This document shows positions 5,669 through 7,081 of a DNA stretch of 32,186 nt, in pieces. The first letter of the stretch is position 1. The number at the start of each line of letters is the position of its first letter. The stretch comes from Pseudomonadota bacterium (lineage in GTDB: Bacteria > Pseudomonadota > Alphaproteobacteria > GCA-2731375). A model generated the notes under the pieces. The model saw nothing but the letters and a program-made list of their open reading frames with translations, did no database searches and was not told the DNA's origin. Both the position numbers and the translations under genes were made by a program. The stretch covers positions 1-32,186 of the forward strand of contig JAQBYC010000050.1 of NCBI GenBank assembly GCA_027623205.1. Reading direction: 5' to 3'.

Positions 5669-7081
5669 GTGATGAATGTGCTACTTGTATCTACCTATGA
5701 ACTTGGGCATCAGCCCTTTGGCCTGGCATCGCCGGCGGCGTGGCTCACGGATGCCGGGGCCGAGGTAAATTGCCTCGATCTGGCGATAGACCTGCTGGAC
5801 GAGACAGCCATACGCGCCGCCGACCTGATCGCGATCTATCTGCCCATGCATACCGCGACGCGCCTGGCCGGCATGCTGGTGCCGCGGATCAGGGCTTGCA
5901 ATCCGTCGGCTCATCTCTGCTTTTACGGCCTCTATGCGCCTCTGAACGAAGACTATTTGCGGACGGAATTAGGTGCCGGGACGGTTCTCGGCGGTGAATT
6001 CGAGAGCGGCTTGCTCAACCTGTACAAACGCTTGTCGGCGAATGGCGCCGCTGCGTTGGAACCGCAATCGGAGCCTGTCATTTCCCTCGTCAAACAGGAC
6101 TTCCGTGTGCCACGGCGAGACGGCCTGCCGCAGCTGTCACGTTATGCCTATGTGGACATGGGCGGTGAGAGGCGCCGCACGGTGGGCTATACCGAGGCGA
6201 GCCGTGGCTGCAAGCATCTCTGCCGTCATTGCCCGGTGGTACCCGTCTATAACGGCAAGTTTCGCATCGTCCCACGCGGCGTGGTCATCGCGGATATTCG
6301 CCAGCAGGTAATGGGCGGCGCCGAGCATATCAGCTTCGGCGATCCGGACTTCTTCAATGGCGTCGGCCACGCCATCCGAATTATCGAAGACCTTCATGCG
6401 CAGTTCCCAGAGCTGACCTATGACGTGACCATCAAGGTCGAGCACTTATTGAAGCAAGCACGTCATTTCCAGGTGCTGGCCCGCACGGGCTGCCTGTTTG
6501 TTACCACGGCGGTGGAAGCCGTCGACGATGGGATTTTGCGCATCCTGGATAAAGGCCATACGCGGGACGACTTCATCCATCTGGCTGGTCTGGCGCGCGA
6601 GGCGAAGCTGACGCTTTCCCCCACCTTCATTCCGTTTCTGCCCTGGACCAGCCGCGAAAGCTATCTGGACCTCCTGCGGCTCCTGGCCAGCCTCGGACTG
6701 GTCGATTACGTGGCGCCCGTTCAGCTCACTATTCGGCTGCTGGTCCCCAAAGGGTCGCGGCTATTGGACGTTTCCGAAATGCGGCAACACCTGGGTAATT
6801 TCGATGCCGCCGCCCTCAGCTATCAATGGACCCACCCGGACCCGGGCATGGACGCCCTGCATGATCGCGTGCAGCGGGCGGTGGAGGCCGGCGAGGCCGC
6901 GGGCGCCTCTCGACGCGATACCTTTGCCGTGCTGTGGCGCCTGGCGCACGAGGCCTGCGGCCTGGACGCGCCGGACCTCTATCATGCGGCAACCTTGGAC
7001 GCGCCGGTCCATGTGCCATGTCTGAGCGAACCCTGGTACTGTTGCGCCGAACCCTCGGCAAGTCAGATCGCTGATATTTAG
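5669..7081 (+). CDS. Radical SAM protein with CCAEP C-terminal tail
   Basis: A 470-residue protein with three parts. Residues 1 to about 125 look like a Rossmann-type, B12-binding-like domain ('NVLLVSTYELG', 'IYLPMHTAT', 'GGEFESG') but lack the DxHxxG cobalamin-ligand motif. Residues about 170-400 form a radical SAM core with the cluster motif CKHLCRHC (Cys181, 185, 188), which binds a [4Fe-4S] cluster and S-adenosylmethionine. The C-terminus carries YCCAEP (Cys458-Cys459). This matches, as I recall it, a family described as CUAEP/CCAEP-tail radical SAM (seleno)proteins, in which the first or second tail residue pair is Sec-Cys or Cys-Cys; here both codons are Cys (TGT TGC). The reaction is unknown. 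The start is GTG at 5669 with ATG at 5672 as a near-equivalent. Confidence 0.87.
   Translation: MMNVLLVSTYELGHQPFGLASPAAWLTDAGAEVNCLDLAIDLLDETAIRAADLIAIYLPMHTATRLAGMLVPRIRACNPSAHLCFYGLYAPLNEDYLRTELGAGTVLGGEFESGLLNLYKRLSANGAAALEPQSEPVISLVKQDFRVPRRDGLPQLSRYAYVDMGGERRRTVGYTEASRGCKHLCRHCPVVPVYNGKFRIVPRGVVIADIRQQVMGGAEHISFGDPDFFNGVGHAIRIIEDLHAQFPELTYDVTIKVEHLLKQARHFQVLARTGCLFVTTAVEAVDDGILRILDKGHTRDDFIHLAGLAREAKLTLSPTFIPFLPWTSRESYLDLLRLLASLGLVDYVAPVQLTIRLLVPKGSRLLDVSEMRQHLGNFDAAALSYQWTHPDPGMDALHDRVQRAVEAGEAAGASRRDTFAVLWRLAHEACGLDAPDLYHAATLDAPVHVPCLSEPWYCCAEPSASQIADI

What the first reader, a model, noticed from the sequence alone, without database searches (positions are those of the whole stretch)
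5669..7081. CCAEP-tail radical SAM protein of unknown reaction
The protein combines a B12-binding-like N-domain without the cobalamin DxHxxG motif, a CxxxCxxC radical SAM core and a C-terminal YCCAEP. In a family I recall, this tail can contain selenocysteine (CUAEP). A Cys/Sec pair at the very tail suggests redox exchange or metal binding near the active site. This copy is the all-Cys form (TGT TGC at 7040-7045), one base from a TGA.
Basis: partly seen in the sequence, partly recalled or inferred. Interest (0 to 1): 0.65.

Follow-up and report, generated by a model that had tools for sequence, protein, structure and literature searches.

The report
Selenoprotein-family radical SAM, ArsL-like, Cys form
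The gene makes an all-cysteine member of a known but uncharacterised radical SAM enzyme family whose last few residues hold a cysteine-cysteine or cysteine-selenocysteine pair; the family is a sister of the enzyme that builds the arsenic antibiotic arsinothricin and nearly always keeps company with an amino-acid-joining enzyme, so it probably makes an unusual amino acid on a soft atom held by the tail.

Summary
ORF 5669-7081 (+) is a full-length member of NCBIfam NF040546, "CUAEP/CCAEP-tail radical SAM (seleno)protein" (621.7 bits, cut-off 500). It has CX3CX2C, a B12-domain-like N-half without DxHxxG, and the tail YCCAEP. All 82 complete members read end W[YF]-xx-[AS]EP with xx = CC (37), CU (43) or UC (2).

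Sec is real: 41/45 UGA members have a SECIS-like stem against 10/37 Cys members, and all 21 UGA genomes tested have selA. Two Chloroflexota put Sec at the first tail position, so the pair behaves as a unit. The window's genome has selA and tRNA-Sec, yet this copy is Cys-only without the hairpin.

New here is the context. The family is collinear with the C-As-bond enzyme ArsL (~33% identity), which also ends in Cys-Cys. An L-amino-acid-ligase ATP-grasp occurs in 72/80 family genomes, often as Nfu - rSAM - ATP-grasp; here Nfu and ligase sit together on another contig. ArsL loci often carry an ATP-grasp too, but CUAEP loci have almost no arsenic genes.

Best reading: ArsL-like transfer of SAM's 3-amino-3-carboxypropyl group to a thiophilic acceptor held by the tail, then peptide ligation. 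The family is known; the reaction is inferred.

The parts
5669..7081 (+). CUAEP/CCAEP-tail radical SAM protein, all-Cys form (470 aa)
   Evidence: NF040546 621.7 bits, cut-off 500; Pfam Radical_SAM 41.6 bits; 80 relatives at 53-87%
5672..6037 (+). N-terminal Rossmann-like B12-binding-type domain without DxHxxG
   Evidence: Model residues 1-122 match the corrinoid-binding protein 1y80 at Z 12.2; sub-threshold Pfam B12-binding; motif absent
6209..6232 (+). Radical SAM cluster motif CKHLCRHC (C181, C185, C188)
   Evidence: Cys invariant in 83 aligned members
6491..6493 (+). C275, a further Cys invariant in the CUAEP family but not in ArsL
7034..7054 (+). C-terminal tail WYCCAEP (C458, C459)
   Evidence: TGT 7040-7042, TGC 7043-7045

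Best explanation
The protein is an all-Cys member of the CUAEP/CCAEP radical SAM family (shown). It works in a small pathway with a dedicated Nfu-type Fe-S carrier and an L-amino-acid-ligase-like ATP-grasp enzyme, which in this genome are encoded together on another contig, C193 (co-occurrence shown; joint function inferred). [quoted passage not shown] This gives a non-protein amino acid that the ATP-grasp enzyme joins to another amino acid (inferred). The identity of the acceptor (As, Se, Sb, Hg or other) is open.
For: Closest characterised family is ArsL (278 bits, next family 36.5), with collinear alignment, 32-35% identity to five plasmid ArsL/RCCLKC proteins, some 60 invariant columns, and Cys-Cys at the C-terminus of both. 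ArsL's reaction is proposed as ACP transfer from SAM to As(III) (PMC8552651). The ATP-grasp enzyme lies in 48 of 80 loci, in 37 of them within 500 bp downstream on the same strand; 23 of 31 further genomes plus the window's own have it elsewhere, 72/80 in all. Its nearest solved structures are L-amino acid ligases (3vot 2.5e-30, BacD) and family members carry LAL_C2. Nfu lies directly upstream in about 19 loci and beside the ligase in the window's genome. ArsL/RCCLKC plasmid loci in Alicyclobacillus, two Priestia and Pantoea also carry an ATP-grasp gene. Cys/Sec swaps at both tail positions. Two loci place a Sec-form member beside CpaM and an HgcAB-like fusion, relatives of the mercury-methylation proteins; these are the only two of 50 family genomes with that fusion.
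Against: The ArsL equivalog cut-off (450) is not met. ArsR, ArsM, ArsQ, ArsN1, ArsI and arsenic transporters of ArsL loci have no match in 1.03 Mb of CUAEP loci; one ArsC does. The ATP-grasp enzymes of the two families are only distantly related (22-26%). In the window's genus all 11 genomes have the ATP-grasp gene (Nfu beside it in the nine read) but only 4 have the radical SAM gene, so the ligase pair persists without it. Eight family genomes lack the ligase. ACP transfer by ArsL itself is inferred from its product, and no enzymology of the CUAEP family was found.
Confidence: 0.4

Rival explanations
1. The tail pair is a redox or hydrogen-atom donor: ordinary 5'-deoxyadenosyl chemistry on an organic substrate, with the vicinal Cys/Sec giving an electron or H atom, becoming disulfide or selenenylsulfide, and being re-reduced.
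For: Best fold match is AprD4, a radical SAM diol dehydratase with a B12-like domain and no cobalamin (Z 26.8, 405 residues; no cobalamin from own knowledge). Vicinal Cys/Sec with interchangeable positions is what a redox pair would look like.
Against: Sequence is far closer to ArsL than to AprD4 (278 against 28.8 bits); ArsL has the same Cys-Cys end and no redox role is reported for it in the paper read.
Confidence: 0.22
2. It is functionally an ArsL: it makes hydroxyarsinothricin or a near relative from As(III), and the ligase makes an arsenic-containing dipeptide.
For: Homology and shared Cys-Cys end; ArsL loci with an ATP-grasp enzyme.
Against: Almost no arsenic genes in 80 loci; ArsL cut-off not met; ArsL's third tail Cys (CCLKC) is absent, while C275 is family-specific; wide spread in many phyla.
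Confidence: 0.12
3. The tail cysteines ligate an auxiliary Fe-S or other metal cluster, perhaps with C275, as auxiliary clusters do in MiaB-like or HydE-like enzymes.
For: MiaB, RimO and HydE are among the fold matches; a dedicated Nfu carrier next to the gene fits heavy Fe-S demand.
Against: Sec is not a usual Fe-S cluster ligand (own knowledge); the N-domain cysteines that hold MiaB's auxiliary cluster have no conserved counterpart here.
Confidence: 0.12
4. The ATP-grasp/Nfu association is incidental genome company, and the enzyme acts alone.
For: Seven genus members keep the ligase without the radical SAM gene; the window copy is unlinked, next to a C45 acyltransferase and P450 in two genomes.
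Against: Adjacency recurs in Acidobacteriota, Pseudomonadota, Methylomirabilota, Tectimicrobiota and others, over distances that erase chance neighbours.
Confidence: 0.12

Closest known systems
NCBIfam NF040546, CUAEP/CCAEP-tail radical SAM (seleno)protein
   Same: Full-length match over cut-off, tail, CX3CX2C, N-domain
   Different: Nothing: it is a member, in the all-Cys form; no function is assigned to the family in what I could read
ArsL, arsinothricin biosynthesis radical SAM protein (NF040542; RCCLKC tail)
   Same: Collinear homologue at 32-35%, same N-domain and cluster motif, C-terminal Cys-Cys, frequent ATP-grasp neighbour
   Different: Below the ArsL cut-off; about 45 extra residues before the tail; tail CCAEP rather than CCLKC; extra invariant C275; no arsenic genes nearby; Sec forms exist
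AprD4 (PDB 6fd2), radical SAM 1,2-diol dehydratase
   Same: Nearest solved fold; B12-like domain
   Different: 20% identity over aligned residues; only 28.8 bits to the AprD4 family model; aminoglycoside substrate; model residues 434-469, tail included, not aligned
HgcA/HgcB and the HgcAB-like fusion (NF043039) with CpaM (NF043040)
   Same: Soft-metal chemistry with vicinal C-terminal Cys in HgcB (own knowledge); physically linked to Sec-form members in two Acidobacteriota
   Different: Not homologous to the radical SAM protein; absent from nearly all CUAEP genomes

Membership tests
NF040546 CUAEP/CCAEP-tail radical SAM (seleno)protein | Whole-protein score over the curated cut-off (500) | tested here: met
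   621.7 bits, residues 4-468 of 470
NF040546 CUAEP/CCAEP-tail radical SAM (seleno)protein | C-terminal C[CU]AEP | tested here: met
   YCCAEP at 457-462; 82/82 complete members
NF040546 CUAEP/CCAEP-tail radical SAM (seleno)protein | CX3CX2C radical SAM core | tested here: met
   C181/C185/C188, invariant
ArsL (NF040542) | Whole-protein score over the curated cut-off (450) | tested here: not met
   278 bits
ArsL (NF040542) | RCCLKC terminus | tested here: not met
   Ends ..YCCAEPSASQIADI
ArsL (NF040542) | Arsenic gene context (arsQML, arsR, arsN1) | tested here: not met
   No match in the window or in CUAEP loci except one ArsC
ArsL (NF040542) | ACP transfer from SAM to As(III) | not testable with these tools
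   Needs enzymology
Cobalamin-dependent radical SAM | B12-binding domain with DxHxxG | tested here: not met
   Motif absent in all 86 sequences; the fold of the domain is present; His-off cobalamin binding is not excluded
Selenoprotein (this copy) | In-frame UGA with SECIS hairpin | tested here: not met
   TGT TGC, no hairpin at the family position, although the genome has selA and tRNA-Sec

The most novel reading that the evidence does not exclude
CUAEP proteins are the core of a widespread, undescribed pathway that builds a metalloid- or selenium-containing amino acid by radical ACP transfer onto an atom held between tail Cys and Sec, followed by peptide ligation; the rare HgcAB-like/CpaM variant adds a methyl group to the same atom, as ArsM does after ArsL.
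Probability: 0.2. Interest if true: 0.88.

Novelty: new member of a known kind. Interest (0 to 1): 0.55.

Why it matters
The family has a curated name but no function that I could find. Linking it to ArsL, to an amino-acid ligase and to Sec at either tail position turns an unknown into a testable enzyme: look for an ACP product on a soft atom. If right, organometalloid amino acids would be made in many soil, sediment and marine bacteria, not only in the few known arsinothricin producers.

Tried and rejected
Linked operon in the window itself: none; neighbours are an LLM oxidoreductase, SDR, P450, C45 acyltransferase, GST and nitrilase-like genes, some of them syntenic only in the nearest relative. 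Rfam in the window: nothing. That the window copy might be a mis-sequenced Sec form: rejected, since its clade is all Cys and no SECIS-like stem is there. MiaB-like sulfur insertion: no conserved N-domain cysteines. HgcAB-like as a general partner: rejected, 2 of 50 genomes, and other Acidobacteriota HgcAB-like/CpaM loci lack the radical SAM gene in the stretch read. DUF169 as a general partner: not found in the four genus genomes searched, close matches only in a sub-group. Measuring the tail-to-cluster distance: no coordinates available. A free-energy test of the SECIS region was weak (p 0.009); the stem count was clear, though it was designed after seeing the sequences. Literature: no paper on CUAEP found; the two Haft selenoprotein papers are not held. 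Sample limits: the 80 loci are the closest by identity, found by patterns that include EPWYCCAE, so tail conservation is partly favoured by the search; the family-profile search and the Thermomicrobium copy (45%) agree independently.

Full report
What is there. The ORF at 5669-7081 (+) codes for 470 aa. It scores 621.7 bits against NF040546, 'CUAEP/CCAEP-tail radical SAM (seleno)protein' (cut-off 500); the next family is NF040542, ArsL (278 bits, cut-off 450), then nothing above 36.5. It has CX3CX2C at C181/C185/C188, no DxHxxG, and ends EPWYCCAEPSASQIADI with TGT TGC at 7040-7045.

Is the tail real and conserved? Eighty relatives in GTDB genomes (53-87% identity), one Thermomicrobium plasmid copy and one genus relative were read through with UGA allowed; one relative (L057) is cut by N's at the tail. 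All 82 complete sequences, the window's included, end W[YF]-xx-[AS]EP. The pair is CC in 37, CU in 43 and UC in 2. The two UC members (L053, L056) come from separate Chloroflexota assemblies, form one clade, and lie among mostly CU forms (support 84 for the wider group). So Sec can sit at either position. On the quick tree the Sec/Cys label needs at least 7 changes, of which starred branches force 3.

Is UGA read as Sec? Downstream of the tail, 41 of 45 UGA members have an uninterrupted stem of 5 or more pairs where a bacterial SECIS is expected, against 10 of 37 Cys members (Mann-Whitney p 7e-9 on stem length; the sequences are related, so this p is optimistic). All 21 UGA genomes tested have selA (one split over two contigs), against 18 of 28 Cys genomes (Fisher 0.0026). 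The window's genome has selA and tRNA-Sec, but its copy and its clade are Cys only, and the stem is missing from the window copy. The Cys form is therefore a settled state here, not a gene cut off from the Sec machinery.

Kinship. Aligned with five ArsL/RCCLKC proteins the family is collinear, 32-35% identical, with about 60 invariant columns; the tail Cys-Cys falls together in both, after an insert of about 45 residues in CUAEP. That last pairing rests on the aligner bridging a long gap, so positional homology of the two tails is likely but not proved. ArsL is proposed to move the 3-amino-3-carboxypropyl group of SAM to As(III) (PMC8552651). An AlphaFold model (mean pLDDT 93.8) matches AprD4 best (Z 26.8, rmsd 3.8, 405 residues), closely followed by MgmA, OxsB and TsrM. 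A shared fold does not give a function.

Partners. Clustering of neighbours gave an ATP-grasp enzyme with an L-amino-acid-ligase C-terminal domain in 48 of 80 loci, 37 of them within 500 bp downstream on the same strand. In 31 of the other genomes it was sought elsewhere and found in 23; the window's genome has it too (C193:32609-33838). That is 72 of 80 genomes. Its best solved relatives are L-amino acid ligases. An Nfu-type Fe-S carrier sits directly upstream in about 19 loci; Fe(2+)-trafficking and DUF169 genes recur. In the window's genome a MarR-type regulator with a Cys-rich end, Nfu and the ATP-grasp gene lie together on C193; locus L012 has MarR, Nfu, the radical SAM gene and the ATP-grasp gene in one place. 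The radical SAM gene has thus left, or been lost from, what looks like the ancestral operon in this genus: all 11 genus genomes have the ligase, 4 the radical SAM gene.

Links to soft-metal chemistry. ArsL-type plasmid loci in Alicyclobacillus, Priestia and Pantoea also carry an ATP-grasp gene, although of a different branch (22-26%). In two Acidobacteriota (L032, L042) the order is Sec-form radical SAM, DUF169, CpaM, HgcAB-like fusion; these are the only two of 50 family genomes with that fusion. Against this, arsenic genes are absent from CUAEP loci except one ArsC.

Mechanism, step by step. Shown: family, fold, tail, Sec/Cys exchange, partner genes. Inferred: SAM cleavage toward the ACP group (from ArsL), holding of a thiophilic acceptor by the tail pair (from the Cys/Sec exchange and from ArsL), ligation of the product (from the ATP-grasp class). 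Unknown: the acceptor and the product. A redox or H-atom-donor role for the tail is the main rival.

Novelty. The gene is one more member of a curated family and is not itself unusual. The position swap of Sec, the ligase/Nfu pathway and the HgcAB-like variant are, as far as the held papers show, not described; two relevant papers could not be read, so part of this may be known.

Noticed in passing
L053:8001-9416 and L056:8001-9395: Family members with Sec at the first tail position (WY-U-C-AEP), TGA followed by TGT or TGC, in two Chloroflexota genomes that both have selA.
   Followed up: yes
L032:8001-12282 and L042:7992-12252: Sec-form radical SAM gene followed by DUF169, CpaM and an HgcAB-like fusion; the only two HgcAB-like genes in 50 family genomes.
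   Followed up: partly
L121:5076-7851 (window genome contig C193): MarR-type regulator with a Cys-rich end, Nfu carrier with an extra NifU-like repeat lacking CxxC, and ATP-grasp ligase; kept in genus members that have no CUAEP gene.
   Followed up: partly
L016:7815-13971 and L064:3843-11367: In Actinomycetota the gene sits with DUF169, a methyltransferase, a PLP aminotransferase and an isoleucine-dioxygenase-like gene, and in L064 also a glutamate-cysteine-ligase-like gene, without the ATP-grasp ligase: looks like a natural-product cluster.
   Followed up: no
L118:7935-9440: The Thermomicrobium roseum record ends the coding sequence at the UGA of the tail; reading on gives WFCUAEP.
   Followed up: no
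L120, L138, L139, L140: ArsL/RCCLKC loci on plasmids carry an ATP-grasp gene, hinting at arsinothricin-type peptides.
   Followed up: partly
L004: Contig filed under a Nitrospira bin carries a copy 81% identical to the window's alphaproteobacterial one; probably mis-binned.
   Followed up: no
window:2858-5420: A P450 and a C45-family acyltransferase upstream are syntenic with the radical SAM gene in one genus relative (G010) but were not found beside it in others.
   Followed up: partly
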